In this document: positions 3,693 through 58,092 of the stretch, piece after piece
Layout: every line of letters starts with the position of its first letter
How positions within the stretch are numbered: position 1 is the first letter of the stretch
DNA from: Bolinopsis microptera
Taxonomy: Eukaryota > Ctenophora > Tentaculata > Lobata > Bolinopsidae
Length of the DNA: 64,000 nucleotides
NCBI RefSeq assembly: GCF_026151205.1
Contig: NC_087082.1
Location: 16,215,365-16,279,364, forward strand
Direction: 5' to 3'
The notes under the pieces: generated by a model
The model's database searches: none
The model's input: only the letters and a program-made list of their open reading frames with translations
Told to the model about the DNA's origin: nothing
Made by a program: the position numbers and the translations under genes

Positions 3693-4301
3693 CTAATTGG
3701 AAACACATTCTTCAAAGCACCAATCCCACCGAGTTGACCCAGTTGTGTAGCACCAAGGTGCACCTTCACTACTAGGATCTCTGCAATAGTTGTGATCACC
3801 AAGTCCGGAGTCAGGGTAGTCTTCAGGAAGATATATGTGAGTGTATGGTGTCTGTCTGCTCCATCTCTGACATGTCGCTCCATTGATTGTTATGGCCACA
3901 TCTCCACGATATTCTTCACCTTCAACACACTTAGGCTCTTCTGGTAGTACTTGTGGTTCAAGTACTTCTGGTAGTACTTGTGGTTCAAAAACTTCTGGTA
4001 GTACTTGTGGTTCAAGTACTTCTGGTAGTACTTGTGGTTCAAAAACTTCTGGTAGTACTTGTGGTTCAAGTACTTCTGGTAGTACTTCTGGTTCCCGTTC
4101 TCCACATCTTTCCAGATCGCAGAAAAATACCATTTGTTTTTCTATTCTTCTACACTTCTTATCAGTACCGCCTTCACACCAGCCCTTGTAACCTTTACTT
4201 TTACATGAATCCCATTTTCTTTTAAGTTGCGTGTTACAATTTCCGGTGACAACTGCCAATACACCAGTCAAGATGAAGACAGTCAATAGAAGTTTTCCCA
4301 T
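3693..4301 (-). CDS. Secreted single-kringle protein with proline/glutamate repeat linker
   Basis: This is an intronless frame of 202 residues. I chose the ATG at 4,301-4,299 because it is followed at once by a signal peptide (MGKLLLTVFILTGVLAVVTG); the open frame further upstream has no ATG. After the signal comes a six-cysteine segment (about residues 21-66), then five or so copies of a ten-residue unit like PQVLPEVLE/PQVLPEVFE (about 70-120), encoded by a 30-bp tandem repeat. A complete kringle module fills the C-terminus, with all six cysteines (CVEG, TCQRW, NYCRDP, PWCYT, DWCFEEC) and the typical GLGDHNYC and W spacing. Kringles mediate protein or lipid binding in secreted proteins. No protease or other catalytic domain is attached, so a binding or adhesive role is an inference. 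The six-cysteine segment matches no family I can name. Confidence 0.85.
   Translation of the reverse strand: MGKLLLTVFILTGVLAVVTGNCNTQLKRKWDSCKSKGYKGWCEGGTDKKCRRIEKQMVFFCDLERCGEREPEVLPEVLEPQVLPEVFEPQVLPEVLEPQVLPEVFEPQVLPEVLEPQVLPEEPKCVEGEEYRGDVAITINGATCQRWSRQTPYTHIYLPEDYPDSGLGDHNYCRDPSSEGAPWCYTTGSTRWDWCFEECVSN
3945..4095. repeat. Coding 30-bp tandem repeat in the kringle gene
   Basis: About five units alternate between two versions that differ by Leu/Phe (AGTACTTCTGG versus AAAACTTCTGG on the plus strand). The pattern is therefore a 60-bp higher-order repeat. Unit length is a multiple of three, so copy-number changes keep the frame. Stop-free frames on both strands here are by-products of the repeat. 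Confidence 0.9.
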
Positions 4302-4329
4302 TGCACTATACCTATAAATATTCACCAAT

Positions 4330-14211: not shown

Positions 14212-15937
14212 GATTGGGAGACATCTGTCCGAAAGCGACATCTGTCCGAAAGCTGAATTAGGGATTTCGGACAGATGTCGCTGTCGGACAGGAGTCGTTT
14301 TTGGCGACATCTGTCCGAATTTCGGATCGTATTGTAATTTAGGTTCACATTCGCATTTCACAAGCTCACAGGTAATCTCGTGACGTTCTAAAGCTGATGT
14401 GATCCCTTAAGATCTGATCCATCGATACGTGATTGACTAGTTGAGAACAGGATCGTGCTAGCCGTACCCTAACAAGCTGTCGATCACATCACAGGACATG
14501 AGTACATATAGGACAGCAGTATGGAGATCACTTATCGCAATCCACAATGGCAACCAATCTTCAGTTTATCCCTGGACGCAAACAAGGCTCGGAGAACCCT
14601 ATCCTAAATGGCTTCAGATACGTCTTCGTCAAGCGAAGTAACGACACCTCCTACTGGAAATGTTCGGAATTCCGAAAGGGTTGCAGAGCCCGCATCCGTA
14701 CCGTGGACAGACAACTGATCACTCCTACTCCTGACCACACTCACCCTGTCCACCATGCTGAAACGACCGTCCACGTCAGCAAACAGAACTTGAAAAGAAA
14801 GGCTTCTGGTGGAGATCAACCGACGAAATACCTCGTATCTGAAGCAGTCGGTGGATTGGGTTACGAATCTAGAGCAAAGCTTGGCTGCCAGCTGTCATCC
14901 CTCAACAGAATGGTACCCTCTACCGCAACCTGTTCGAGGAGATAGACACCTGGGCTTCTGGGGGCTACCAACCACAATCCATCCTCATGGACTACGAGCT
15001 CGCCATTCACAACGCAGTTGCTTCCGTGTGGCCCTCCACTACCAGACGAGGATGTAACTTCCACTACAAGAAAGCCCTCCTGAAGCATGTTAAGCAGACC
15101 AACATCTGGGAGGAGTACCTGACTCCAAACTCTCCTGTTCGGGATTTCTTCGCGATGACTGGAGCTATTGCCTACGTACCGGAGACTGACGTCCCTCAAA
15201 TCTGGAGACACCTGAAGCCCCTCCTTCCTATAGACATGGCTGAGTTTGCTTCATACTACGAAAACACTTGGATCGGGACATCAACCACCAATCCTAACTT
15301 CGCTCCCCACATGTGGAATCAACACGAAGCTGCACAGATGAGGATTCCTCGCTCATCCAACATCGCAGAAGGTTGGCATCACGGATTCCATTCAATGCTG
15401 TCCTGCTCGAAGCCCACAATTTGGAAGTTCCTTGATTGCCTTAAAGCAGAACAAGCCCTTACAGACGTGAAGAAAACCAAAAGAGACGGGCGGGAACTAC
15501 CTGAGCCACGTGCACCCAAATGGATCCGTTATGATCGACAACTTCAGAGAATTGTAGATGATTACGACAACTACAGCAACCCTATGGATTTCCTTAAAGC
15601 TATCCGAAATTTGACTATGCTTTAGATTTGATTCTGTGATATTGTATTATATTGAATTAATTTATAACATTTAAATAACATTGAAACTATTGTCCAATTT
15701 ATCGACATCAAATTAAAATAAACTGTGGTAGTAAACTATGGCTCAGATCATATCTCAAATTGGACATGTTACGTATACAATTTAGCAAGTAACAGTTTAG
15801 ATCATGTCTCTAATTGGAAATGTGTCGTATTGAAATCAGGTCACAATTTCGGACAGATGTCGTTTTTTTCTGGTACCCTGATTCGGACAGATGTCGCTTT
15901 CGGACAGATGTCGCTTTCGGACAGGAGTCGTGTTACC
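14212..15937 (+). mobile_element. Mutator-like (MULE) DNA transposon, internally deleted
   Basis: The ends are inverted and built from several copies of the 16-bp word GACATCTGTCCGAAAG (four near the left end, four near the right). The flanks read ATAATAATA on both sides (14,203-14,211 and 15,938-15,946), a 9-bp duplication as expected for Mutator-like elements, although this word is simple. Inside is a FLYWCH-type transposase gene in two frames. The element is 1.7 kb, short for an autonomous MULE. Confidence 0.85.
14547..15625 (+). pseudogene. MULE transposase with FLYWCH zinc finger, first catalytic region missing
   Basis: The first frame (14,547-14,945) starts with a FLYWCH finger: GFRYVFVKRSNDTSYWKC, then FRKGCRARI and HTHPVHH supply the Cys-Cys-His-His ligands. 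This domain is a common N-terminal DNA-binding module of animal MULE transposases. Coding then jumps to another frame that is open from about 14,873 to 15,625. That frame reads NGTLYRNLFEEIDTW, MDYELAIHNAVASVWP (second catalytic acid), CNFHYKKAL (zinc/His motif) and NIAEGWHHGFHSML (third catalytic acid, Glu). The stretch that should hold the first catalytic Asp is absent at the frame change, and the downstream frame has a stop at 14,870. A catalytically complete product therefore cannot be made. What remains may still bind DNA through FLYWCH. Confidence 0.85.
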
Positions 15938-35600: not shown

Positions 35601-38600
35601 GAGATATCTTGAAATAAGTGCATCAATCGCTACTCGCGAGAGCATAAAAATGGGATCTGACCTAATAACTCAACAACCTGAAGTCTGAAGACTTTAAAGT
35701 TTAAAACCATGCTCTACCCCACTCAATATGATGATTCCGACCATTTTGATGCCCAAGATGAGCGCTTAGCTCCAATCAGAAGCGGAGATATCTTGAAATA
35801 AGTGTGATAATTGTTACTCTCGAGACTGCTAGAATAGTAAAATCGGATTTTTGGCTATTTCTCAAAAACTAAGTCTCTTAGGCCTTAAGTATCTTCATAG
35901 CACTAATATAAACATGCATCTTAGGCACATTTTGGTTCATGGCTGAGGTCTGTATCTCAATCAGAAGCCGAGATTATTTATAGTGGGGGTCGCGATATGG
36001 GTGGGGTCAAAAAGGGCGTGATTCCGAGAAATGCCCCACTGGTGAAAAAGTGTACCTGAGTCCATTGTGTTATTTAGGGTCATATAAGTCGAATTACATC
36101 GAGAAACTTAGCGAACGTCCCAAGGTGAGCAGGACTTTTGCCTGGTCCAGGATTACTTCAGCCTTGTCCATTAACAATGAACTCACCCCCAGTGCGCGCT
36201 ATGCTGCAGTTCTTCCTAATAACTAATTTCTCCCCCCGCATTGCTACTATTTCAAAGAAATTTAGCATTTAAATGCGTATACTGGTATAGAGTATAATCT
36301 GTCGAGATTTCTCCAGAACAGGAAGAAAAGATATTCTCGATGGGATGTAATGTGGTTGACAGAATAACTGCTTTAAGTTAATCGAGTGGCTGCTTCTATT
36401 TTCGGTATTATCTTTAATGTTGTCTCTTGTGTTAGTTGGGCCGTGCAATCGGGTCATTTTGAATAATGATTGGTTCAAAAAAATTCGTAGTTAGTAAACG
36501 GATCAGATATCGCTAAATTTGTTCTTGAATTGACATGACATATATGATCGAATAAATTAATATAATGTCGCGTGCGTACGCAAGTGCGCTAAAATGTACT
36601 TTACATGCACTAAAGTCGCATAGTGCTAGTAGTTTAGTTGATGTTGGGCGCGAATGACCCGTAAAAGCGCGCAATTGTCTTGAACGCCCGGTAAAAACAA
36701 GTTTTCTGGGTGCGTTCACGTAAATCTTACCTCAACGTCTTTGTACTTTTCCATGTCTACGAAACTAGCACAGGTAGTCTGAACCAGACGTTGGAAGAGG
36801 AAACCACCGGAATACCTTAGAAATATTAGTACAGGAATCTAATTTTAATATTCCACTCAAATATTAAATAAGTAAAAACTTGAAGTTCTTCGTTTCAATT
36901 AACTATTTTAAGTCAGAAGTACAATCAATCTCACTTAATAGAAAACTAACCGTTCCAAAAATATGGGGTATTTGTTCTTGACAAACGCCCAAGTTTGGTC
37001 TCTTCCTTCCCACCCAGCCTTAGCAACGCCGCCAATAACGAAGGGAGTGTCATTTGAACGTACAGCATCGCTTAGTGAGAAGTCTAGTGTCTTAGCTCGC
37101 AAATCAGCGTCAGGACTGGAAATAAACATATAGATAATAGATCTGGACACTGGTGGGGAGTTTATAGTGTTGTGATCACTAAGTATTGGGCCATTTAGAA
37201 GAGATTTGTAGACATAATAGTTATAGTGGTGTGATTATTTGTTCAGTCAATAAAAACAAACAATTTGATTAGGATAACCATCTAATCTTTTACTTGAAAA
37301 CCTTCATTCAACGAATACACCTATCATTCAATTAACTAATTGATATTTGATTGCTCTAACCCGCAGCCAAGAACCCTCTGGATCCTGTCCCTTTCTTCGT
37401 GCAGGTCCGTTTTATTAAACAAGGTTAGTAAGTCCTGATATTCGTCATTCCCGCCATTGGCCCGTACTGTGCTGTACACTGATCCTCTTATATCTGCTGG
37501 TATCTGTTTTCCTCCACTGTAAGAGATATTGTACACTTTCACTTTCACTTTCAACATTTGCCAATTTCGTTTTGAACGTATATTAAACATGTTGTAATAA
37601 GGAGTATTATTGTTGTAATAAGGAGTATTGTTCTGTTTCAGTAAAATTAAGGCAACTATTCCAGGAGAGATGACATACAAATAATATTTAGAGGCAAAAA
37701 CGAATAACCCGAGAAATAACCCCATAGTAACTAGTTAGTACCCTGAAATTAACATAAAAACGCTGTAGACGTGATAAGTATGTTAGTTAGACAATTCCCT
37801 GGGGACTAGTGTTGAGTCAGTGATATCAAATATCAACAGTAAGTTGACATACTGTCCGACATACGACACCATAGTACATACCATAGTACATACCTCGGTC
37901 ACGAGATATATTTCATACATTTCTAACAGAATACGGAGGTTAACATCTAGTGTTTAGTCGTAAGTCACTATAATATTGTATAAGACATCAGGTCATAAGG
38001 TCGATGAGTCAGAACGTAAATAAGTTTAAACTAAATAGTTTAAACTTATTTACTTTAATAAACTTACTTATATTTTGAAACAACGCACCTGATATGCTGT
38101 TTAAACATGTCGTTACACTTTTCAATAACTTCAGTGTCCCCACTGTGTCCCAGAGTCCCTATTAGCATGCTCCGTAACAGTGCGTCTGTGTGCCCGTCTG
38201 TTTCCTTGTTCTCCCATCCCACCTCAGTGAGAATCTTAGAGAATATCTGTCTCCTCATCGCTTTGAACTGAAGATGTTTTGGTGAAGGAGTACAAGTGAA
38301 GATTGTAGTGTGACAATGGAAATGTTCTAGAAGATGAACATTGTTCAAGATTCTCATAGTGTAATATGATAACCGCCTATCTGCACTTATAACATGCATA
38401 CTGCAGGGAAAACACGACCTACTTCCAGACATAATTACAGATAATAATTACAGGTAATTACATAAACCAGATTCTCTAGTAGCAGTAACATAAACCATAG
38501 GATTGTTATCTGATTCACTTGATTGTGGGCCCTAACCTCTACTAATTGTTATCGCTGTTACATTGTTACAATAAGCAGTGAGGGGTGACAAAGTGCGGGG

Positions 38601-41600
38601 AGACAAAGTGGGGGTGACAAAGTGCGGGGAGACAACGTGGGGGAGACAAAGTGGGGGAGACAAAGTGGGGGAGCAAAGTGGGGGAGACAAAGTGGGGGGG
38701 AGACAAGAGGGGGGGAGACAAAGTGGGGGGGAGACAAGTGGGGGGGGGACAAAGTGGGGGAGACAAAGTGGGGGAGACAAAGTGGGGGAGACAAAGTGGG
38801 GGAGACAAAGTGGGGGAGACAAAGTGGGGGAGACAAAGTGGGGGAGACAAAGTGGGGGAGACAAAGTGGGGGAGACAAAGTGGGGGAGACAAAGTGGGGG
38901 AGACAAAGTGGGGGAGACAAAGTGGGGGAGACAAAGTGGGGGAGACAAAGTGGGGGAGACAAAGTGGGGGAGACAAAGTGGGGGAGACAAAGTGGGGGAG
39001 ACAAAGTGGGGGAGACAAAGTGGGGGAGACAAAGCGGGGGAGACAAAGCAGGGGAAGACAAAGCGGGGGGAGACAAAGTGGGGGAGACAAAGTGGGGAGA
39101 CAAAGTGGGGAGACAAAGTGGGGGAGACAAAGTGGGGGAGACAAAGTGGGGGAGACAAAGTGGGGGAGACAAAGTGGGGGAGACAAAGTGGGGGAGACAA
39201 AGTGGGGGAGACAAAGTGGGGGAGACAAAGTGGGGGAGACAAAGTGGGGGAGACAAAGTGGGGGAGACAAAGTGGGGGAGACAAAGTGGGGGAGACAAAG
39301 TGGGGGAGACAAAGTGGGGGAGACAAAGTGGGGGAGACAAAATGAGTGGTGCAAAATGAGGGATGAAAAAGTGACAAACCTGTTGATAACAAGGTAGATG
39401 GTTGAATAGACCTCCCAAATCAGATAAGTTAGTGTTGATACTACTGAGAACAACGTAGTTCCTCTCAGTACTGTAAGATCCCATCAAGGTCAGTAGATTC
39501 GCGGTACTCGAGTAACCTGCAAATTGAGGGGATTTGGGAGCAATCTATAAATAACAAAGGAAATAAGTATTTCAAGATGGCAACTAAGGACCTACAAATG
39601 GGTAGTTACATCCGTAAGAGCGTAAGAGAGTTCCCCCTATGGCCTACACTAAGCACATTGCACAAAAACATAGTTATTGCACACACATATATATCCTATG
39701 TATGTGCAATAACTATATTTTCAAGCGTATAAATGTTATAGTATGTAACATGATGTATATGCCGTCACCCATTTCTGAAGAAAAAAAAAACATAAACAAA
39801 AAAAGTATATAACAATGTAAAACTAAAAACTATAATATAATTTCCAGCTAAATGCTAATTAACAATTAATTACCAGCTTTAGCCAGAGCGAACAAATCCT
39901 GCTGTATCCCCAGTCTGTCTGCAGATGACAGAGCTTGGTTCTTAACAGCTGGTAGCAGTCTCTTCAGAAGATCATCACTGTACTTAACCCGGAACAGTCC
40001 TGCACATTGGAATTTTAAACAATTTTTAAGAACACGTACGATAAACACGTACGATAAAACGAATTAGTTGCTGATAAAAAGTAGCTTCAAGAAAAAGTAG
40101 TAGAGAACCTCAACCTATTCTTAACCTAGACAAACAGCTTAAATTTCACAAAATCTCCTCAACTAATAATTACCTATTTGATTAGGATTAACTTTGACCC
40201 AGTCGCCAGGCCTGGCTCCCTCCAACACGATCTGCCCCTCTCGTCCGTCCAGCAGATAAGTCTGTGGCGTGTCACGTGACTGTGTGACCACAGTAACTGG
40301 CACCAGCCACTGCTGGTCACTGGAGTTATCTCCGTTAGCGCAGAACTTCTGTTGCTTCAAGTTGAGGGTGACACTGTCAGAGGTCTCCACTACCTCCACT
40401 GTCAACATGGGGTACCCTATTTGTCCTGTCCATGTTGACATTACCTGTAGGAGAGATTAATTAAGTAATTATAGTCAATTAGCAAAACAATACATTCTTA
40501 TATGGGGTTTAATCCAGATAATTTGATTTCAGCTATTTAAGTGCCCATTATTTCTCAGTAACAACACCTTCAGGCGGTAATTGGGGACCAAAGAAATTAA
40601 AAATGAACCTTCGTGTAACATTTCACTAAACGTTATAACAATTCAAGTTAATGTGGGCAAGGAGGAAGTAGCTTTACATTCTGACCTTGTTAACAGGTTG
40701 TCCACTTGACTCCTCAAGGGCGGCCCACAAATGCTCAGTAAGAGCGTTCTTGTACTGGTGACGTTTCAGGTACAGAGCTAGTCCCTTCCTGAACTTCTCT
40801 GCTCCCAACCAGTTGTGCAACATCCTGATCACGCTGTTACCTGAGTGAGACATCACGTAAGGTGGGTGTGACGTCACGTGAAGGTGGATGTGACGTCACG
40901 TGAAGGTGGCCGTGGGTATGACGTCACGTGAAATTGGGTGTGACGTCATGTGAAGGTGCGTATGACGTCACGTGAAGGTGGGTGTGACGTCACGTGAAGG
41001 TGAGTGTGACATCACGTGAAGGTGGGTGTGACGTCACGTGAAGGTGGGTATGACGTCACGTGAAGGTGGGTGTGACGTCACGTGAAGGTGGTTGTGACGT
41101 CACGTGAAATAGGCGTGGTCACTTCGCGTTTGGTGTGATGTTTTTATCGGTCGTTTAATTAGTCACAGATTAAAGAAATTACCTTTACAATAAGAAATAG
41201 CATCAAAGATTTCATCCACCTCTTCAGGATGACCTACAGGAACTTCAATAGGATGAGAGTTATCTAGAGCGTCCAGTTCAAGTGCACGTGAGAAATCCAC
41301 TGTGAGGAGATATTTACGTTGGTTATTAACATTTAACATTTAACAAGCACCATATAAGGTGACGAATAAAGATGCAATAAAGTGTTTATGGTTAGTGATA
41401 ACACTTGAAAATAAATTCTTCTATTTCACACAAAATATTGCTAACTATTAGTGGAAATCTGTTTGCAGATCTCTAAATCTTACTGTTGACGTATTGGAGC
41501 CAAATGTCCCAAGAAGGGAAGCAGTGATCCACGCAGAGGTACTCGATCCAGCTAGCAAAACCTTCGTTTAGCCACAAGTGAGTCCACCATTGCATGGTGA

Positions 41601-43715
41601 CCAGGTTTCCAAACCACTGATGGGCCAACTCGTGACCAACTACCAGGGCAACCCACTGTTTGGTTCCAGAAGAGGTGTTCAGTGGATCCACCAGTAACGC
41701 AGTCTCCCTGTAGGTCACCAAACCCCAGTTCTCCATCGCTCCTGAATTGTAAATATTGTTGTCATGTTGCTGTCTTCTTAATAGGTCTCAAGTCAAACGT
41801 ATCTTTAAAGAGATTTGGTTATTTTAAATATTAAATTTGATGAAATGATATGTTTAATCAGACTAAGATTAAGAATGATGCAAGTTATCGTGAGATACAC
41901 ACCAAAACTAAGAGTAGGCACTGCTATCATGTCCAATTTGGGTAAATCGTACTTAATTTCAAAATAGTCTGCGTAAAACGGCATACATTGGACCGCAACA
42001 TCCAGGGCAAACTGACCCTGTTCACTTTTACCTAAAATAATAAATCTATTACTGAATCATTAAAAATCAATTAAGTAAACGATACCTGCAGCAAAGTCAG
42101 GAATAGCAATGAGATCCATTTTGGGTAGTGGGTAGGGTATTTCAAAGTAATCATTATAAAACGGCAGAGTCTTAACGGCAACGTCTAATGCAAACTCTCC
42201 TTGTTCTTTTTTACCTGATACAAGATTTTGCGGATAAAGATTTAGACAAGCTCATAAATATCATCTATTACCGGCTATTACATACAGCACGACCTTATGT
42301 TATGATAAAGGGAACGTATTTTCTAAGATCGACTCGAGAGCATTGAAATCGAATAATATCAGCAGTTAATAGAGATACAGCTAATATATATGTAATATAA
42401 AGCCTGAAAAGAAGTAAAATAGAGGTGAAAATTCTACAAACCGACTGGAGTGTATACTCTGATAAGAACATCGTTCTTATCTCGAGCCTCAACGTAATCA
42501 AACTCTCCGACTACAAAGGCAACCAGATAGGTCGACATTATTGGCGTGCGATCGTAGGTTGTTATCTTGATACTATCTTGTACTTCCTTGATGAGAAAAA
42601 TTAGTAGAATTGAAAATGTATCAATAAATAAATCAAATAGCGCAAATATAAACCATGATCTAATTATGGAATTTAAACTTAAAATATAAAATTACTTCAA
42701 AAACAAAAACTTACTAAAACCTAAGTTAAATATCTAAAATACCTCTTTAACTGCAGGCATGTTTGACAGAGCCACAGAAGCTACAGGAGACACCAGTGTT
42801 ACATCAAATGTTGCCTTGATAGCAGGTTCGTCCCAGCAGGGGAAGGCACGGCGAGCATCTGTTGATTCGAACTGTGTGACAGCAATGGGATGCTTACTTC
42901 CATCGCCAGCTGAAGAAGAAATATGTAATTGATTCTATTTGAAGTTAAAATAGTATGTTGGAGAGATATTGTTACTGTATAACTATAATTACTGTCATTA
43001 TAATATTCATTGATCTCAAAGCCTTTATTTATGTATGGTGCCATCCAGTGAGCTAAATTCGATTTACAAACTAAAATACACAAGACTTTTTAAATTCAGA
43101 TTGCAGAAAGCAATCATAATCAGCCTCACAGCCCAAACGACACAGTTTAAGAAAGTTTTACCTGTATAGCAACTGCGATAAAATCCTCTCAACTTATCAT
43201 TCAGAATCCCAGTAAAGTTGAGGTGGATCTGTCCAGAACCTAGAGGCAAAGAACCAGGGAAGGTCACAGTTAGTGTCTCATCTTCAGCGTTAGTTTTTAT
43301 GTCTGATGAACTAACTGTGTTTCCACCAGAAGTGAAGGAGGCACTTTGAATTTCAATCTCAGCACTGTTCATCTTGACAGCATTTACAGACTCTTTCACC
43401 TGGAATTGTAAATGAGATAAGACGAGAATAATAACAAATAAAACGAAAGAAATATTGCATTATATCACAGATAGTTTGAACGAATAACAAAAGATAGGGA
43501 TAACAAACCTCAACATCGATAGTCTCTTTGCCACTAAAGGAGTTCTTCACTAGATCCGGATGAAGGTAAAGGGTGTAGTTGGAAGGAACCACAGTAGAGG
43601 GAAGATGCTCAAATGGTTTTCTTTGACTGGCAGACATCCTGAAGCTTCTTGCTAACCTTATAATTGTGACACTTTTAGAGACTGACCTGAGGCTGGATAG
43701 CAGGATTGTACTCAT
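32648..43715 (-). CDS. NPEPPS: Puromycin-sensitive aminopeptidase (M1 family), complete gene
   Basis: Coding exons, gene order: 43,715-43,509; 43,399-43,162; 42,909-42,743; 42,586-42,442; 42,214-42,086 (5a) or 42,031-41,903 (5b); 41,741-41,484; 41,299-41,183; 40,840-40,686; 40,444-40,174; 39,999-39,874; 39,516-39,380; 38,267-38,089; 37,516-37,361; 37,115-36,951; 36,815-36,731; 32,785-32,648 (TAA). All have GT/AG ends and phases agree throughout, giving about 890 residues, the usual family size. Landmarks are [25 protein letters not shown] (substrate N-terminus binding), [10 protein letters not shown] with NEGFASW (zinc ligands and catalytic Glu), the ERAP1-like C-terminal helical domain and the terminal [17 protein letters not shown] block. 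The enzyme trims N-terminal residues from cytosolic peptides. A basic, acid-free N-terminus ([20 protein letters not shown]) before a second Met at residue 27 could be a mitochondrial presequence, with cytosolic product from the second Met. Confidence 0.95.
32981..34073. mobile_element. hAT-superfamily non-autonomous element with exact 8-bp target duplication
   Basis: The ends are CAGAGGCACATATTAGG at the left and its reverse complement at the right. The flanks are CCACGTGA on both sides (32,973-32,980 and 34,074-34,081). A CAGAG terminus and an 8-bp duplication are hAT hallmarks. It split an M1 hairpin module: the left part (32,878-32,980) continues at 34,082 as TACAACATA. The interior has degenerate TTCCGCACATTTCCGCATAA repeats near both ends and a 22-23-bp minisatellite. 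No transposase is present. It lies in the last intron of the aminopeptidase gene. Confidence 0.9.
33190..33515. repeat. 22-23-bp minisatellite inside the hAT element
   Basis: About twelve copies of GGGACCGTGACCCAGGCCC followed by TTTC, with two longer variants carrying GGAACTCAT and CACGTGACCC inserts that alternate at larger period. Open frames on the minus strand here are repeat artefacts. Confidence 0.9.
34174..34260 (+). repeat. Hairpin module M2, copy 2
   Basis: It runs from AACGGGTGATACTCGTAAAA to GGTAGGTTATAAACGTACAA, with AGTCCAACTC and GCGCGCGTC between. It is the reverse orientation of the copy at 30,441-30,530 and the same orientation as 45,449-45,540. Confidence 0.85.
34349..36153. 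mobile_element. 1.8 kb near-complete palindrome (giant foldback MITE) in the last aminopeptidase intron
   Basis: Left end ATCCTGGACCAGGCAAAAGT pairs with the reverse complement at the right end (36,153), and TA flanks both sides (34,347-34,348; 36,154-36,155). The arms match almost to the centre near 35,250. Each arm contains about three tandem ~175-bp modules with CACTTATTTCAAGATATCTC, GATTGGAGCTAAGCG, CATCTTGGGCATTAAAATGG and GACTTCAGGTTGTTGAGTTA. No protein is encoded. A pre-mRNA crossing it would form a hairpin with a stem approaching 900 bp. Confidence 0.85.
38580..39345. repeat. 14-bp G-rich minisatellite, about 54 copies
   Basis: The unit GGGGGAGACAAAGT is almost invariant, with one-base G-run changes and a few degenerate units near 38,690-38,760 and 39,040-39,110. 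It fills the intron between the exons at 39,380 and 38,267; on the gene strand it is C-rich. The G runs of four to six bases, ten bases apart, could form intermolecular or long-loop quadruplexes. The very long open frames in all frames here are artefacts of the unit. Confidence 0.95.
40860..41108. repeat. 22-bp minisatellite of overlapping CRE and E-box sites, 11 copies
   Basis: Each unit centres on TGACGTCACGTGA, where the CRE/ATF palindrome TGACGTCA overlaps the E-box CACGTG. The CRE is perfect in ten units (one TGACATCA) and the E-box in ten (one CATGTG). Spacers are AGGTGGGTG-like. The array fills most of a 342-base aminopeptidase intron (40,841-41,182). It could bind bZIP and bHLH-ZIP factors, or be a chance product of tandem duplication. 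Confidence 0.9.
41903..42031 (-). other. Alternative exon 5b of the aminopeptidase
   Basis: The exon is exactly 129 bases, as is exon 5a (42,086-42,214). Both begin and end in phase 1, have AG and GT boundaries and encode homologous 43-residue segments: 5a [19 protein letters not shown] ... [12 protein letters not shown], 5b [19 protein letters not shown] ... [12 protein letters not shown]. About two thirds of residues match. Both join correctly onto GAMENWG. The intervening intron is only 54 bases. 5a keeps the conserved PDF-x-AG of the family; 5b has PTLSFG. Confidence 0.9.
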
Positions 43716-47800: not shown

Positions 47801-48329
47801 AATTAGGTTTGGGCATGGTCAGCCCCCTGTCAGCCGATCTTGAGGTGACGTACGACACCTCGTTTACGAAATCAATGTCTGAAAGGCTACACACGTCGCA
47901 TATGAGGACAAAAGCATGGGTAATTTTGGCACCACTGTAGAGTGGTGCCAAAATTTTTGGGTGGGTTCATGGCTAGAGCCCTTTTTACCGCCGTGAGGCG
48001 GGCGCGCGCTACTGCAAGCGCAAGGGCTCTGGATAGAGCAAGTTATTTACAAATATAAAATTAAACAATAATTACGTTTACGGTTTAATTTCAGTTGATC
48101 ATAAATTTGAAAAAATTATTCCGCGTGTAAAACGTATATTCATAATTGGGGTTTTACGGTTTCATTTTAAAAATGTTTATAATTGAAAAATTTTATTTCG
48201 GGCGCCGCGCATCCTAAAAATTTATTTATTTTAAAATATGCGATAAAAATCGAGCGCTAGTATGAATTTTTGACAGGTAGCCCTGTGACTACTGACTAGT
48301 GACTCATAACTATTATCGAAGAGTATATG

Positions 48330-50986
48330 GTATTGGATCCATTCTTCATTCTTGTTATCTTTATAGTTGTTATCTTTATAGATGTAATCAAACGTGTATT
48401 GACAACATTTACACAAATGATATAAACAAGGTTGTTGCCTCAGGTACAGTATCTGACAGAATCTCGCATCATCTGCCAGTTTTTCATATTTTTGAAGACC
48501 TAGCTGTAACTAACTCTGAACCTCAAGTTAAACATACCCAATATTATGATTACAGTGAATCCAACGTTCGAGTCCTTGTTTCATCCTTAAACCAACATTT
48601 CTCTGAGCACCCACCAAAAAACTTTATTGAATTTCACGACACATTCAAAACGAATCTAGACAAATCATGTAAACTCAGTAAACCTAAAGTCTCCAAAAGA
48701 ACGCCAATGACAAATCCGTGGATAACAGGAGGATTGATCGCGTCTATAAATAAAAAACATGAGCTGCACGACCACTGGCATAAAGCGAAGAGAGAAAAAT
48801 GTTTGCATAATCCAGGTAAACTTTGTCGTGAGATCAAGGAAGCCTGTCACTGCAATCCTTGTAATGATGCCAGGGAAAAGCATGCTAATTTTACTGACAA
48901 ACGTAGGAGAGTTAAACACGTAATAAGACTAGCTCAACGCCTCTACACGTGCAACAAAATTGAGGAGTGTCAGGGTGACAGTAAAAAAACCTGGCAGTTA
49001 ATTAATAAAGTGCGAGGAAAGCAAAATAAGCAAATGAAACCGTCATTCATGATAAACAATGAGCGTGTTATTTGTCGACGAGTTATTGCTCATGAATTTA
49101 ACAAGTACTTTGTGTCAATCGCCTCCAATCTGAACGAGGTCTGTGAGAGGAGGATTGATGAAGATCCTATAATTGCTAAATCATTCACTGACTACTTGCC
49201 ACAGTCCTGTCCGTCAAGTATTTATCTTGCTGAATGTACAAGCTCTGAAATAATACAAATTATAAGTGAATTTAATAACGGTAAAGCTAGCGACATACCG
49301 GCACATGTAATGAAGCAGTGTAGTCAAACTATATCAGAACATCTTGCCAGAATTTATAACAACTGCATGAATGAAGGTGTCTTCCCTGATCAACTGAAAA
49401 CGGGTAAGATAACCCCGATATATAAAAAAGAAGATGAGGAATTACTAGAGAATTACAGGCCAGTATCAACATTACCAGTATTTGGTAAAATATTTGAAAA
49501 AATTATTTACAGTAGATTATACAACTTTTTCTTATCTCGAGGAATAATATTCGAAAATCAGTTCGGCTTTAGAAAAAACCACTCGACAAGTCATGCTCTT
49601 AACTACTCCGTAAATCACGTCGAAGAAAAACGGAATAATAAAAACCACGTATTAGGAATATTTATCGATCTCTCTAAAGCATTTGATACCTTACCATTTG
49701 ATATGCTACTTAAGAAACTTAGTAATTACGGAGTTAGAGGAAACGCACTAAAGCTGCTCTCCAGCTATCTAAATAATAGATACCAGTATGTTAGTGTACT
49801 TGGTGAAGAATCAGAGCCTCTCCCAGTTAAACTAGGCGTACCTCAAGGATCCGTTTTGGGCCCCTTGCTTTTTCTTATCTATATAAATGACATCTATAGA
49901 TGTAGTACATTAGGAAAATTTGTACTATTTGCAGATGACACAAACATCTTTGTAGCTGCTGAAACTAAGGAACAAGCATACAAAATAGCGAATGAAATTC
50001 TCGACTCTGTGTGCCAATATATGCGCCATAACCTACTGCACATTAATGTTAAAAAATCTTGTTACATGTACTTCTCGCCTACTAAACGTAAGACCATTGA
50101 TAATACTGAAAATGACTTGAATCTAGAAATTGATGGGATCCCGATCAAACAGGTTACTGAAACGAAATTTCTAGGTGTAATTATTGATGACAAACTGAGT
50201 TGGACACCTCATATCGAGAAACTAACTAAGAAATTAAACAGCATATGTGGCCGTATTTATCGAATAAAAAACTCCCTCCCCAGCCAGCTGTACAAACAGA
50301 TATACCACACTCTTTTTGAATCTCATCTAGGATACGGTATAACTGTATGGGGTGGTGTATCAATTAATAAGCTTTCACCACTATTCCTTGCACAGAAGAA
50401 ATGTGTCCGAATCTTATTTGGGGACTCGGAAGCATTTAGCGACAAGTTTAAAACTTGTTCTCGTAGCAGGCCAATCCAGTGCAGTATAAACAAGAAAGGT
50501 CAAATATCAAATGAATCAACTATACCTCACATTAAACCGTGTTCTATATGTATCAGCTTGAGGAAGACTGGTGATAAACAAGCAAGGCCACATCGCTGCC
50601 AAATACTTGGGGCAGAATTCCACTCTAGAGAATCAACAAAACCTATTTTCCAATCTAAGGAACTAATGACAGTACATAACATATATAGATACAGATGCAT
50701 TACAGAAACAATGAAGATAGTGAAGAGTCATCAGCCCATATCCATGTATTCTCTCTTTAAGAAGTCTGAGCTCAGAGATGACAGATTTGTGACACCACAC
50801 TCATCTCACAATTTCGCATATAAAGGGGCAAATTTATGGAATAGGTTTCTTGAGCAGTCAAATGCACGTGGTAAAATAGGTTCACTAGGTTCAATTAAAT
50901 CCCGATTGAAGCTTTCTATCATGAAGGCTCAACACCAACCTGACAATATTAACTGGCAGGACTTAAACTTCAACACTTTCCTATGA
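48330..50986 (+). CDS. LINE (non-LTR retrotransposon) ORF2: endonuclease tail, reverse transcriptase, C-terminal domain
   Basis: A single uninterrupted frame of 895 codons (nominal start 48,299). It opens in the last part of an APE-type endonuclease (CIDNIYTN, then SHHLPVF where the family has SDHLP, so a conserved Asp is His). The reverse transcriptase follows, with LKTGKITPIYKKEDEELLEN, FGFRKNHSTSHALNY, GIFIDLSKAFDTLPFDMLLK (first catalytic Asp), PQGSVLGPLLFLIYINDI and FADDTNIF (catalytic DD), then KFLGVIIDDKLSW and a C-terminal region with CSICISLRKTGDKQARPHRC. The style is that of the jockey/CR1 group; the exact clade is not decided. Most of the endonuclease is missing, so the copy is 5'-truncated, as is usual for LINE insertions. 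The intact long frame suggests recent insertion. Confidence 0.9.
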
Positions 50987-53547: not shown

Positions 53548-56500
53548 ATGGTTGCTGAAATTGATGACTCTGACGTGCCTTATGAGGAAGAAGTGTTGAG
53601 GAATTCCTACAATGTCAAATCCTGGATGCGGTATATTGAACACAAAGCAAGTGGCCCCAAGATCCCCTTGTACATGGTGTACGAGAGAGCTTTGAAGGAA
53701 CTTCCCTGTAGCTACAAGATATGGTACAAGTATCTGTGTCTAAGAAGGAGGGGCACCAGGGGTAGATGCATTGATGATCCAGAAATGAACAGAGTTACCA
53801 ACTGTTATGAGAGAGCTCTTGTCTTCCTTCACAAGGTTTTTACTTGATGTACAATTTTCGATATTCAGATGAAACATGGTTCTACTATACATTCAATGGC
53901 CAGTACAATTGATAAGACTTATTATCTAATACTGTCTAAAACATTTTATTTTTCAGATGCCCAGAATATGGATAGACTACTGTCAATTCACAGTTGATTT
54001 GAACTACATTACCAAAGCAAGACACACACTTGACCGAGCCCTGCGCTCTCTTCCGATCACCCAACACTGTCGGATTTGGCCCATATACCTGAACTTTATT
54101 AAAAAGCACACCATTAAGGAGCAAGCACTCAGACTTTACAGACGGTACTTACAACTTGCTCCCGATGATGCTGAGGTTTGAGAAGCTTTCATGTTATGTT
54201 GTATTTACAGCATATTTTATGCTGTGGGGTTATGTGTCGAATTTGGGTACAATTCATTTGATGTCCAAGTAATAAGAGCAAATTTGGTATCCCGATATTT
54301 ATTTCAAACTATATAGTAATTTTATTCTTTTTTCACTGCCTATGTGAATTTATCTGCTCTCAGATATTGATTGATTTTCTGTTGTCTGTGGAGCACCTTG
54401 ACGAAGCAGCAGTTCTCTTAACCAAGTGTCTGAACAACGAAGATTTCCAGTCGAAGAAAGGTTTTCTTCAAGTTTTAATATTCTAATTTTGATATTTTGT
54501 ACATTTTTTCTTTTTCAAAAGTTTTTAAATTCGAAACCATTATTTAGCTTTTTATTATATTGAGTTGTTGTTGGTTAGCATTTAATTAGTGAGTGACATT
54601 ACGATAAGCTAAATTATTGATAATACACAGGTCAGTCTAAGCATCAGATGTGGGTACAGTTGTGTCAGCTGTTGAGTGAGAATCCCAACAAGATCACGAG
54701 TATCAAAGTGGAGCCTATCATTAGACAAGGACTTCAGCGATTCACTGACATGACAGGTGAGTAGTTGAGTTTTATTAGTTTCAACTTTTCAGATTAAAAT
54801 ATCATTTTCTGGTTCACTTTCAATTTTTGTTTCATTTTAAGTACCAACTTCAGTTTCAGATTCATGTTACTTCAAGTCAATCTTATCTCGTTAGACGTTC
54901 CTTAATCCATTCCATTCTCGATCTCCACATAATGTTGACTATACAACATCCAGGTAAACTGTGGATATCACTGGCAGACTACTACATCAGAAAACACCAG
55001 TTTGACAAAGCACGTGATATTTACGAAGAGGCTGTGAAAACTGTGATGACCGTCAGAGATTTTGGCCAGGTTTGTTTTGCTCCTTCATAAAGATATTTGT
55101 TAAATGTTAACTTGCACTTCTTCAAGATGATCTGCTCCGAGCAACCATGTCCCTCTCATCATTTGTTATGGAGTCTCATTTTGTTGATGCACTCTAAATC
55201 AAATTTACAAGTTCCGTTTAGCAAACAAAGCATCTACGCTCAAGCATCATTGTCTCTCTTTGCTAGGTGTTTGACGTGTATGCGGAATTTGAAGAACAAC
55301 TGATAACACTGAAGATAGAAAACAGGAATAAGAACGGCAAAACACCTGATAATGAATTAGATCTGCAGCTCAGACTCAGGCGATTCGAAAAGTTAGTTAC
55401 TCTTGAAAGTTGTACTAGCCCTTTACGATTTTTCGTTCTTAGTCTTCATTAGATTTAATGTGATATTGTCTTCTGTGTGTTTAGGAATATTGTGAAAATT
55501 ATCTTTGGGAGTTCGTGATATTTATGAACAGATGAATGCGGGATATGTAATTATGAAATACTCAATATTATCGTTATCCGCACTATTATCCGTACTACTA
55601 TCCGTAGGTACTGTTATCTGCACTAATATCCGTACTATTAATTATTATCCGTACTGTTATCTGCACTAATATCCGTACTATTAATTATTATCCGTACTGT
55701 TATCTGCACTAATATCCGTACTTCTAACCAGGTTGATGCAGAGAAGACCACTCCTTCTCAACTCTGTTCTCCTCCGTCAGAACCCTCACAATGTAGATGA
55801 GTGGCTAAAACGTGTCTCTCTGTTTGAAGGTTGGCAGATCAGTAATGTGCATTAGTTTATTCACTGTACTTTCTTACTTTACATTACTTTAAGGACATGA
55901 TCATTGATCAATACTTTAACATGATCAATACTTAGTGTTTCACCCCCGAGTTTGAAAGCAGAAAACAAGACTACTAATCGATCACTCCTTTGAAAAAGCA
56001 AATTGATTAATTAATTAATTAATTAATTGCTCGTTACCCAGGGAAGCCGCGTGAGATAGTTAACACCTACACAGAAGCGATAAAGACAATAGACCCGAAG
56101 CTCGCTACAGGCAAACTCAGCTCCCTTTGGATTGAGTTCGCCAAATTCTACGAGGACAACAAACAGCTGAAAGAAACTCGCGTTATATTCGACAAAGCGG
56201 TCCTCGTCCCATTTGTCAAGGTGGACGAGTTGGCGGACGTGTGGTCTCACTACATTGAGATGGAGCTGCGCCACGAGTGCTACGACGAAGCGCTGAAGCA
56301 CGTGCGCACCGCGACCACGCCTCCTCCCCACAAACCAAGCTACTTCGACCGCACGGAATCAGTGCAGAACCGCGTCTACCGGAGCCTCAAACTGTGGTCA
56401 ATGTACGCAGATCTGGAGGAGTCACTTGGAGACTTCACTACCACTAAAAACGTGTACTACAGAATCCTAGATTTGAGAATCGCCTCCCCACAGGTCATCC

Positions 56501-58092
56501 TCAACTTCGCGGGACTTCTCGAAGAGAAGAACTATTTCGAGGAGTCCTTCAAGATCTACGAACGGGGGATAGGCATGTTCAAATGGCCACTTGTCTACGA
56601 TTTATGGACTACGTATCTGACTAAGTTCGTGACACGTTACGGAGGAGACAAGCTGGAGAGAGCACGTGACCTGTTTGAGCAGTCTCTGGACCAGTGTCCT
56701 GAGAAGTTTGCTAAGTCTATATTTCTGTTGTATGCTAAGTTGGAGGAGGACTTCGGGTTAAAGAGACACGCCATGGCGGTGTACAACAGGGCCACGCAAG
56801 CTGTGCTCAAGGTTGGTTACTATCTGTCATTTTAACAGGTGTTGTAATGTCACAACAAAGTAATCGCTTTATTGTTCTTCGTGCTGATTAATGATGTATA
56901 ACTTCCTAATTCAGAACTTTTCTTAAGAATCCCATGGCTAATGACTAGATAATTGTGATTTTATTGATTATCAAAGCAACAAAGTGAAAAGTAAAACAAT
57001 ACTAAATCACCAATAATCAGGAGGAGCAAGCGGAAATGTTCCAGATCTACATAACCAGAGCAACAGCCTGTTTCGGAGTGACCCACACTCGTCAGATATA
57101 CGAGCAAGCGTTGGAGACACTACCCGACACTGACGCTCGTGTCTTCGGACAGCGCTTTGCGGAACTGGAGACAAAACTTGGAGAGATTGACCGGGCGCGC
57201 AGCATCTACATTCACACTTCACAATTCGCAGATCCTAGACAGTGCAGTGAATTCTGGAGGGTAAGTTAACAACTTTAAAAGTGTTAAAACATGTTGTTAT
57301 TGTTGATGGTGTGTGTAGTTATTGTTGTTATTGTACTTTGTGAGTGCGGATACCACCCTGATATCTCTACTAGTATGAGGTTTACTTTACACTCAAATTG
57401 TGCAATTATAAAGTAGGTAATTGACTTATGTTTAAGTAAGTTAAATCTAACCCCTGCTCCAACAGCTATGGCAGACATTTGAAGTAGCGCACGGCAACGA
57501 GGACACATTCGGGAGATGCTGCGTATCAAGCGGAGCGTGCGTGACAAGTACAGCACCCAGAGCAGCTTCAACCTGCCACCTGATGCTGACACTACAACTG
57601 CGGCGGCGGCTGATCCCATGGCACAGTTACAGAAGGACGTACAGTTCGTCAGAGGTAATGTTTTATGTTTCAAATATTTAGGGTTGGTCACAGTTTTAGT
57701 GTTTTGAAGTTAGTTTTTAGAGAATGTGAGTTTTAGTGGGACTGTCACATAATATTTTAAGATTATTGTGATAGATATTATACTACCTAAACAACTATAA
57801 ATTTAAAATCATAACTTTCCTTGAATTAATCAATTGTACTGATAAGCTTTCTAATATCTCTTTCATTTCAGGAAATGAACAGACCCAGGCAAGCACTGTA
57901 CAGAACCCAGATGAGATAGCTCTTGATGACGATGACGAAGACGAAGACGATGAAGATGAAGATGATGAACAAGAAGAGGAAGAAGCAGGAGAAGAAGAAG
58001 GAGAAGATGGTATAGTGAAACAGTGTGTACCTGATGAAGTTTTTGGGAAACTTGCAGAGCAAGTCAACCAAGACGAGGACGAACTGCAGTGA
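53548..58092 (+). CDS. XAB2: Pre-mRNA-splicing factor SYF1/XAB2, HAT-repeat protein
   Basis: Coding exons: 53,548-53,835; 53,957-54,175; 54,364-54,460; 54,631-54,756; 54,954-55,069; 55,267-55,391; 55,732-55,829; 56,042-56,811; 57,021-57,260; 57,466-57,654; 57,872-58,092 (TGA). Phases agree, apart from one missing base in the tenth, giving about 830 residues against about 855 in vertebrates. The product is almost wholly HAT (half-TPR) repeats, for example MPRIWIDYCQFTVDLNYITK, LWISLADYYIRKHQFDKARD, VQNRVYRSLKLWSMYADLEE and TKLGEIDRARSIYIHTSQF. It ends in a Glu/Asp-rich tail and PDEVFGKLAEQ, as in XAB2. SYF1/XAB2 is a scaffold of the Prp19/NineTeen-associated intron-binding complex and links splicing with transcription-coupled repair. 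The eighth exon is unusually long (770 bases), richer in GC and CpG than the others. Confidence 0.95.
55570..55728 (+). repeat. ~45-bp tandem repeat in a XAB2 intron
   Basis: The core TTATCTGCACTAATATCCGT is followed by ACTATTAATTATTATCCGTACTG, about three copies with degenerate leading units. It ends at the acceptor of the exon at 55,732. Confidence 0.85.

What the first reader, a model, noticed from the sequence alone, without database searches (positions are those of the whole stretch)
41903..42214. Mutually exclusive exon pair just before the aminopeptidase active-site GAMEN motif
Exons 5a and 5b are both 129 bases, have the same phase and splice signals, and encode homologous segments. 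The intron between them is 54 bases, so close spacing could by itself stop both being used together. The swapped segment runs straight into GAMENWG, which binds the substrate N-terminus. 5a keeps the family PDF-AAG; 5b has PTL-SFG. Swapping would make two enzymes with different pockets from one gene. I know of no such pair in vertebrate puromycin-sensitive aminopeptidase.
Basis: partly seen in the sequence, partly recalled or inferred. Interest (0 to 1): 0.85.

Follow-up and report, generated by a model that had tools for sequence, protein, structure and literature searches.

The report
Swappable active-site exon in comb-jelly aminopeptidase
A comb-jelly gene for a general peptide-trimming enzyme carries two alternative versions of the exon that helps build its substrate pocket, spaced so closely that they probably cannot be used together, so one gene probably makes a wide-pocket and a narrow-pocket enzyme.

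Summary
On the minus strand, a puromycin-sensitive aminopeptidase (PSA, family M1) gene holds two tandem 129-nt homologous exons: 5a (42214-42086) and 5b (42031-41903). Both are in phase 1 with AG/GT borders, 54 nt apart. The genome is a lobate ctenophore, very probably Bolinopsis microptera. 5b is not dead: 29 of 44 residues match 5a although synonymous sites are saturated. 5a is the conserved form; 5b carries nearly all the change. Four adjacent replacements, DFAA to TLSF, lie directly before GAMENW. The last is human PSA Ala315, credited with PSA's open S1 site; LTA4H has Tyr there (PMC10343166). All four inclusion patterns keep frame, so exclusivity must come from splicing. The gap is about half the shortest of 117 sampled introns (98 nt), and the two inner splice sites score lowest among those modelled. 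The Mhc2 pair, predicted in another ctenophore, has a 59-nt gap here. Best reading: sterically enforced mutually exclusive exons that switch the S1 gatekeeper. No RNA or second-ctenophore data were available.

The parts
42086..42214 (-). Exon 5a, 129 nt, phase 1; conserved PSA version ending ...PDFAA(G)
   Evidence: 35 of 44 residues equal human PSA
41903..42031 (-). Exon 5b, 129 nt, phase 1; alternative version ending ...PTLSF(G)
   Evidence: 29 of 44 residues equal 5a, 24 of 44 human PSA
42032..42085 (-). 54-nt gap between the 5a donor and the 5b acceptor
   Evidence: shortest of the 15 introns modelled in the gene
42442..42586 (-). Exon 4, upstream splice partner of 5a or 5b
41484..41741 (-). 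Exon 6, downstream splice partner; GAMENW and HELAH-X18-E zinc site
36731..43637 (-). Modelled part of the PSA gene: 16 exons counting 5a and 5b; exons downstream of 36731 and any upstream of 43637 not traced
   Evidence: 900 bits to human PSA 8sw0

Best explanation
5a and 5b are a tandemly duplicated, mutually exclusive exon pair in the PSA gene of a lobate ctenophore. Exclusion is probably steric: with only 54 nt between the 5a donor and the 5b acceptor, the splicing machinery cannot use both across that gap, so exon 4 is joined to either 5a or 5b and then to exon 6. The swap replaces a 44-residue segment that ends at the GAMENW loop and includes the S1 gatekeeper (human Ala315: Ala in 5a, Phe in 5b). 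5a should give the usual broad-specificity PSA; 5b should give a zinc aminopeptidase with a shorter or narrower S1 pocket, LTA4H-like at this position. Shown: gene, exons, frames, constraint on 5b, asymmetry of change, gap against sampled introns, splice-site ranks. Inferred: expression, exclusive inclusion, steric mechanism, changed P1 preference.
For: Tandem homologous exons of equal length and phase; saturated synonymous change with conserved protein; 5a=human and not 5b at 11 sites, the reverse at 0; DFAA to TLSF at the S1 tract next to GAMENW; a bulky residue at this position shortens or narrows S1 in other M1 enzymes (PMC6222927 section 3.2); gap 54 nt against 98 nt for the shortest of 117 sampled introns; inner donor ranks 16 of 16 and inner acceptor 15 of 15; all inclusion patterns in frame, so decay cannot police the choice; OGDH precedent with branch points 25-41 nt from the donor; Mhc2 tandem pair with a 59-nt gap in the same genome.
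Against: No RNA evidence for either isoform. One species only. 5b replaces Asp and Phe that are invariant in the 79 bacterial relatives aligned, so its product might be impaired. Some animals splice introns of this length (recalled; not tested). The splice-site model rests on 13-14 sites. A run of four or more changed residues somewhere would arise in 29% of random placements.
Confidence: 0.72

Rival explanations
1. The exons are mutually exclusive, but the 5b product is catalytically weak or dead and acts as a decoy, a binding form or a regulatory subunit rather than as an enzyme with another pocket.
For: 5b loses Asp312 and Phe313, invariant in 79 of 79 bacterial relatives aligned, together with both Ala; radical replacements A-F and P-D.
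Against: GAMENW and the zinc site lie in the shared exon 6. This genome's LTA4H-type gene also lacks the Asp and has Tyr at the gatekeeper (PSFPYGGMEN). 5b still matches the M1 model at 185.5 bits when joined to exon 6, against 192.9 for 5a.
Confidence: 0.15
2. Exclusion rests on another splicing device: U12/U2 incompatibility of the 5a donor, or competing RNA structures.
For: 5a donor GTATCGTTT matches the U12 donor consensus (recalled) at 8 of 9 bases; U6atac and U12 genes are present.
Against: The acceptor of exon 6, which 5a must use, has no good U12 branch site (best 5 of 9) and the 5b donor matches only 4 of 9. Seven duplex tests between the introns and exons were no better than shuffles (fractions 0.12-0.87) and the whole-region fold had z +0.8; single-sequence tests are weak.
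Confidence: 0.07
3. The exons are not exclusive: 5b is an ordinary cassette exon, sometimes included together with 5a.
For: Double inclusion keeps frame.
Against: The 54-nt gap is about half the shortest sampled intron; the two inner sites score lowest; repeating the 43-residue segment before GAMENW would probably disrupt the catalytic domain (inference).
Confidence: 0.04
4. 5b is an unused relic of an exon duplication.
For: No transcript seen; 5b has the weakest acceptor modelled and nearly all the amino-acid change.
Against: Open frame, exact length and phase, intact AG/GT, saturated synonymous change with 29 of 44 residues kept; 0 of 20,000 neutral simulations did as well.
Confidence: 0.02

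Closest known systems
OGDH exons 4a/4b of vertebrates (PMC7969005, passages); alpha-tropomyosin mutually exclusive exons (seen only as cited)
   Same: Tandem exclusive exons; donor-to-branch spacing below about 50 nt proposed to block joining of the two
   Different: There the branch points were mapped and exclusivity was shown by experiment; here only sequence. Here the whole gap is 54 nt
Mhc2 cluster-0 of the ctenophore Mnemiopsis leidyi (PMC3912159, passages) and its counterpart in this genome
   Same: Predicted exclusive tandem pair in a lobate ctenophore with a very short gap (59 nt here)
   Different: Motor protein; exons of 193 and 223 nt, unequal and not multiples of three; affects loop-1, not a substrate pocket. 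The pair was a prediction there too
Human PSA / NPEPPS (8sw0; PMC10343166, abstract and passages)
   Same: Gene identity; 5a shares 35 of 44 residues, including DFAAG
   Different: No alternative exon is mentioned in the passages seen; Ala315 only
LTA4H (leukotriene A4 hydrolase, M1)
   Same: Bulky aromatic (Tyr267) at the position that is Phe in 5b; narrow S1 tunnel (PMC6222927 section 3.2)
   Different: A separate gene, not a splice form; the 5b protein otherwise stays PSA

Membership tests
Mutually exclusive tandem-duplicated exons | Adjacent homologous exons with compatible phase and splice borders | tested here: met
Mutually exclusive tandem-duplicated exons | Both copies coding and under constraint | tested here: met
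   (within one genome only)
Mutually exclusive tandem-duplicated exons | Exactly one copy in each mature transcript | not testable with these tools
   no RNA data available
Steric-exclusion subclass | Donor-to-branch distance below about 50 nt | tested here: met
   The gap is 54 nt in all; the six pattern-matched branch sites listed lie 14-45 nt from the 5a donor. The branch point itself is not mapped
Steric-exclusion subclass | Gap shorter than introns the species normally splices | tested here: met
   0 of 117 sampled introns below 98 nt; a sample, not the whole genome
Docking-site/selector RNA structure subclass | Complementary intron elements beyond chance | tested here: not met
   single sequence only
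U12/U2 incompatibility subclass | U12 donor with a matching U12 branch site at its acceptor | tested here: not met
   donor 8 of 9, branch site at the exon 6 acceptor at best 5 of 9
Puromycin-sensitive aminopeptidase (M1, NPEPPS type) | Closest to PSA among solved M1 peptidases; GAMENW and HEXXH-X18-E present | tested here: met
   900 bits to 8sw0 against 464 for the next type; motifs in exon 6
Puromycin-sensitive aminopeptidase (M1, NPEPPS type) | Broad P1 specificity and puromycin sensitivity | not testable with these tools
   needs enzyme assay

The most novel reading that the evidence does not exclude
Ctenophores switch the substrate range of their PSA gene by an exon pair that toggles the S1 gatekeeper between Ala (wide) and Phe (narrow), probably by cell type, for instance in peptide-signalling cells. 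Very short gaps (54 and 59 nt, against a sampled intron floor near 98 nt) may be a general ctenophore way to make exons mutually exclusive, shared by PSA and Mhc2.
Probability: 0.4. Interest if true: 0.72.

Novelty: new member of a known kind. Interest (0 to 1): 0.55.

Why it matters
[quoted passage not shown] A natural splice switch at the residue linked to its broad specificity would be a ready-made test of how the S1 gatekeeper sets M1 specificity, which also bears on inhibitor design. It would add a second gene with a predicted exclusive pair in ctenophores, a lineage proposed as sister to all other animals, with a simple spacing rule that one minigene experiment can test.

Tried and rejected
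Retrocopies as fossil transcripts: the intronless 879-aa M1 genes on C5 are another M1 type (PNYLVGGMEN), not PSA retrocopies, so they say nothing about exon use.

Competing RNA structure and U12 incompatibility: tested and not supported (U6atac and U12 genes exist).

Other tandem pairs: none among the modelled PSA exons. Kinesin matches with overlapping profile ranges were read in two genes (C7, and one of the two C13 genes) and two overlapping myosin pairs were read (C3, C6): I read them by eye as ordinary neighbouring exons or read-through. The other C13 gene and the overlapping pairs at C6:14631478 and C6:16804344 were not read. COX1 for taxon identification: no match.

Gatekeeper census in bacteria: 80 loci from one scan whose patterns included AAGAMENW, so residues 314-315 lean towards Ala. 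One of the 80 was lost to a stricter pattern. The M1 loci from 13 further-searched genomes (L101-L115) were fetched but not analysed, nor were L006, L009, L092-L094, L097 and L098. A structure prediction of the spliced isoforms was not attempted: the tool takes proteins that the DNA gives letter for letter, and these are spliced.

Literature: PSA with 'mutually exclusive exon' gave one plant paper (listing only). The listings (2 papers; 20 of 40 shown; 10 of 18 shown) named no such pair in PSA; one search found 0 papers. The Drosophila exclusive-exon paper sought by DOI is not held. These searches cover an open-licence library only, not annotation databases, so absence from print is not shown.

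Full report
WHAT IS THERE. The minus strand of window 43637-36731 holds a puromycin-sensitive aminopeptidase gene. Sixteen exons, counting 5a and 5b, were reconstructed by reading AG/GT borders in the sequence (exon 13's end corrected). Exons downstream of 36731, and any upstream of 43637, were not traced. The spliced protein with 5a matches human PSA (8sw0) over residues 2-734 at E 9.3e-270 and 900 bits; the next M1 type, glutamyl aminopeptidase, scores 464 bits. Exon 6 carries GAMENW and HELAH-X18-E. Exons 5a (42214-42086) and 5b (42031-41903) are each 129 nt, phase 1 at both ends, separated by 54 nt. All coordinates in the finding are right.

WHICH ORGANISM. The genome has 264.65 Mb in 232 contigs; the contig numbers met run to C13, and C13 is still 16.35 Mb long. 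An intronless glutamate receptor of this genome matches ML032222a iGluR (a Mnemiopsis protein; organism recalled) at 407 bits, and the first listed receptor of another name scores 243 bits; a second receptor of this genome, L010, matches kainate receptors slightly better than ML032222a. Bolinopsis microptera is reported with 13 chromosome-scale scaffolds and a k-mer genome size of about 254 Mbp (PMC10232365, passages). So the source is a ctenophore, most likely lobate and very probably B. microptera; the species name is an inference.

IS 5b REAL. 5a and 5b share 82 of 129 nucleotides and 29 of 44 residues, counting the two split glycines. Synonymous differences are saturated (pS 0.765) while dN is 0.30; differences fall 16, 8 and 23 on codon positions 1, 2 and 3. 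In 20,000 simulations with the same number of random changes the mean was 16 shared residues, the maximum 25, and 81% contained a stop. The simulation treats all base changes as equally likely. Joined to exon 6, both versions match Peptidase_M1 (5a 192.9, 5b 185.5 bits). 5b is therefore most likely an old, protein-coding exon.

WHICH IS THE CONSERVED FORM. 5a shares 35 of 44 residues with human PSA, 5b 24. Sites where 5a equals human and 5b differs: 11; the reverse: 0 (binomial P 0.001); sites where 5a equals 5b but not human: 5. Against the consensus of bacterial relatives the two counts are 12 and 1, and 5a is closer than 5b to all 79 aligned, of 80 fetched. The 80 were found with 5a as query, which favours 5a; the human comparison has no such bias. 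Four of the five sites shared by 5a and 5b match the bacterial majority, so they do not date the duplication.

WHAT THE SWAP DOES. The last four residues before GAMENW (human 312-315) are Asp-Phe-Ala-Ala in 5a and human, Thr-Leu-Ser-Phe in 5b. In the 79 bacterial relatives Asp and Phe are invariant and each Ala is kept in 76 of 79; the Ala counts lean high because a scan pattern contained AAGAMENW. The human PSA structure paper numbers GAMENW 316-321 and says that the small Ala315, where APN has Met260 and LTA4H a larger Tyr, opens the S1 site and may allow a broad range of P1 residues (PMC10343166, passages). PMC6222927 (section 3.2) describes the same variable gatekeeper: Val459 of PfAM1 and Pro333 of ERAP2 might shorten the pocket, and Tyr267 of LTA4H induces a narrow S1 tunnel. 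Phe in 5b is thus predicted to narrow S1. An M1 paralogue of this genome, which I take for LTA4H-type by its motif, reads PSFPYGGMEN, so an aromatic residue there is natural. That the 5b enzyme is active, and what it prefers, is inference. With 15 changes placed at random, a run of four or more appears somewhere in 29% of placements, and at exactly this place in 1%; the place was picked after seeing it.

HOW EXCLUSION WOULD WORK. All four inclusion patterns (5a, 5b, both, neither) keep frame without a stop over the modelled exons (819, 819, 862 and 776 residues), so nonsense-mediated decay cannot police the choice. The gap is 54 nt; the other 14 introns modelled in the gene are 109-1112 nt. 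From consecutive exon matches, 41 myosin introns are estimated at 98 nt or more (41 of 62 neighbouring pairs; 21 skipped because the profile coordinates did not abut, one of them the Mhc2 pair itself). Sixty-two kinesin introns are estimated at 107 nt or more (pairs outside the accepted profile gap were dropped, four of them listed as overlapping, and four in-frame insertions of 117-195 nt inside matches were not counted). The shortest of each family was read exactly: 98 and 107 nt. So 0 of 117 are below 98 nt; most are estimates. A donor-to-branch distance of about 50 nt is described as the minimum for efficient splicing (PMC6692369, passages), and in human OGDH branch points 25-41 nt from the donor enforce exclusive use (PMC7969005, passages). 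Here the six pattern-matched branch sites listed lie 14-45 nt from the 5a donor. In a leave-one-out model built from the gene's other sites the 5a donor ranks 16 of 16 and the 5b acceptor 15 of 15: the two sites that would have to be joined for double inclusion. The outer sites are also on the weak side (5b donor 13 of 16, 5a acceptor 13 of 15), and the model rests on 13-14 sites.

A PARALLEL IN THE SAME GENOME. [quoted passage not shown] The myosin search found tandem exons of that kind here; read exactly, they are 193 and 223 nt, the second with a longer loop (ten residues), and the gap is 59 nt. I identify them with that pair by position and by the longer loop. Two tandem pairs with 54- and 59-nt gaps, where sampled introns start at 98 nt, suggest a common spacing rule. 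Unlike PSA, the Mhc2 exons are not multiples of three.

ALTERNATIVES. RNA pairing gave no signal beyond shuffles. U12/U2 incompatibility fails at the shared acceptor, although U12 and U6atac genes exist. A dead exon is unlikely. A catalytically impaired 5b isoform stays possible, because 5b loses the Asp and Phe that are invariant in the relatives aligned.

KNOWN OR NEW. Sterically enforced tandem exons are a known kind: a human survey lists potential steric interference in 57 clusters, 9% (PMC5740500, passages). I found no report of such a pair in PSA, but those searched an open-licence library, two of them showing only part of their lists, and no eukaryotic genome collection or annotation database was available. 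I file it as a new member of a known kind with an unusually clear functional prediction.

Noticed in passing
L091 1-2301 (G000:C3:9153100-9155400): Tandem homologous myosin exons (193 and 223 nt, 59-nt gap), apparently the counterpart of the Mnemiopsis Mhc2 exclusive pair predicted in PMC3912159.
   Followed up: partly
40845-41108: About 12 copies of a 22-bp repeat holding TGACGTCA (CRE-like; label recalled) in PSA intron 7, ending just before the exon 8 acceptor.
   Followed up: no
38577-39341: About 54 copies of a 14-bp minisatellite in PSA intron 11.
   Followed up: no
3693-4328: Open frame with a Kringle domain and a short repeated PEVLEPQVL-type stretch.
   Followed up: no
14873-15625: MULE transposase domain in an open frame.
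   Followed up: no
48296-50986: 896-aa open frame that looks like a LINE-type reverse transcriptase (by eye; no family search run).
   Followed up: no
56023-56835: Syf1/CRNKL1-type HAT-repeat splicing factor exon.
   Followed up: no
L001 and L002 (G000:C5, about 151 kb apart): Two nearly identical intronless 879-aa M1 aminopeptidase frames reading PNYLVGGMEN.
   Followed up: partly
L011 and other loci: Bacterial MAGs (Binatia, Patescibacteria) encode PSA-type peptidases up to 77% identical to this ctenophore enzyme over 135 residues of the catalytic core, strikingly close for bacteria.
   Followed up: no
G000:C1:24797798, C2:8889635, C7:12555123: U6atac (two) and U12 (one) genes: this genome keeps minor-spliceosome RNAs.
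   Followed up: no
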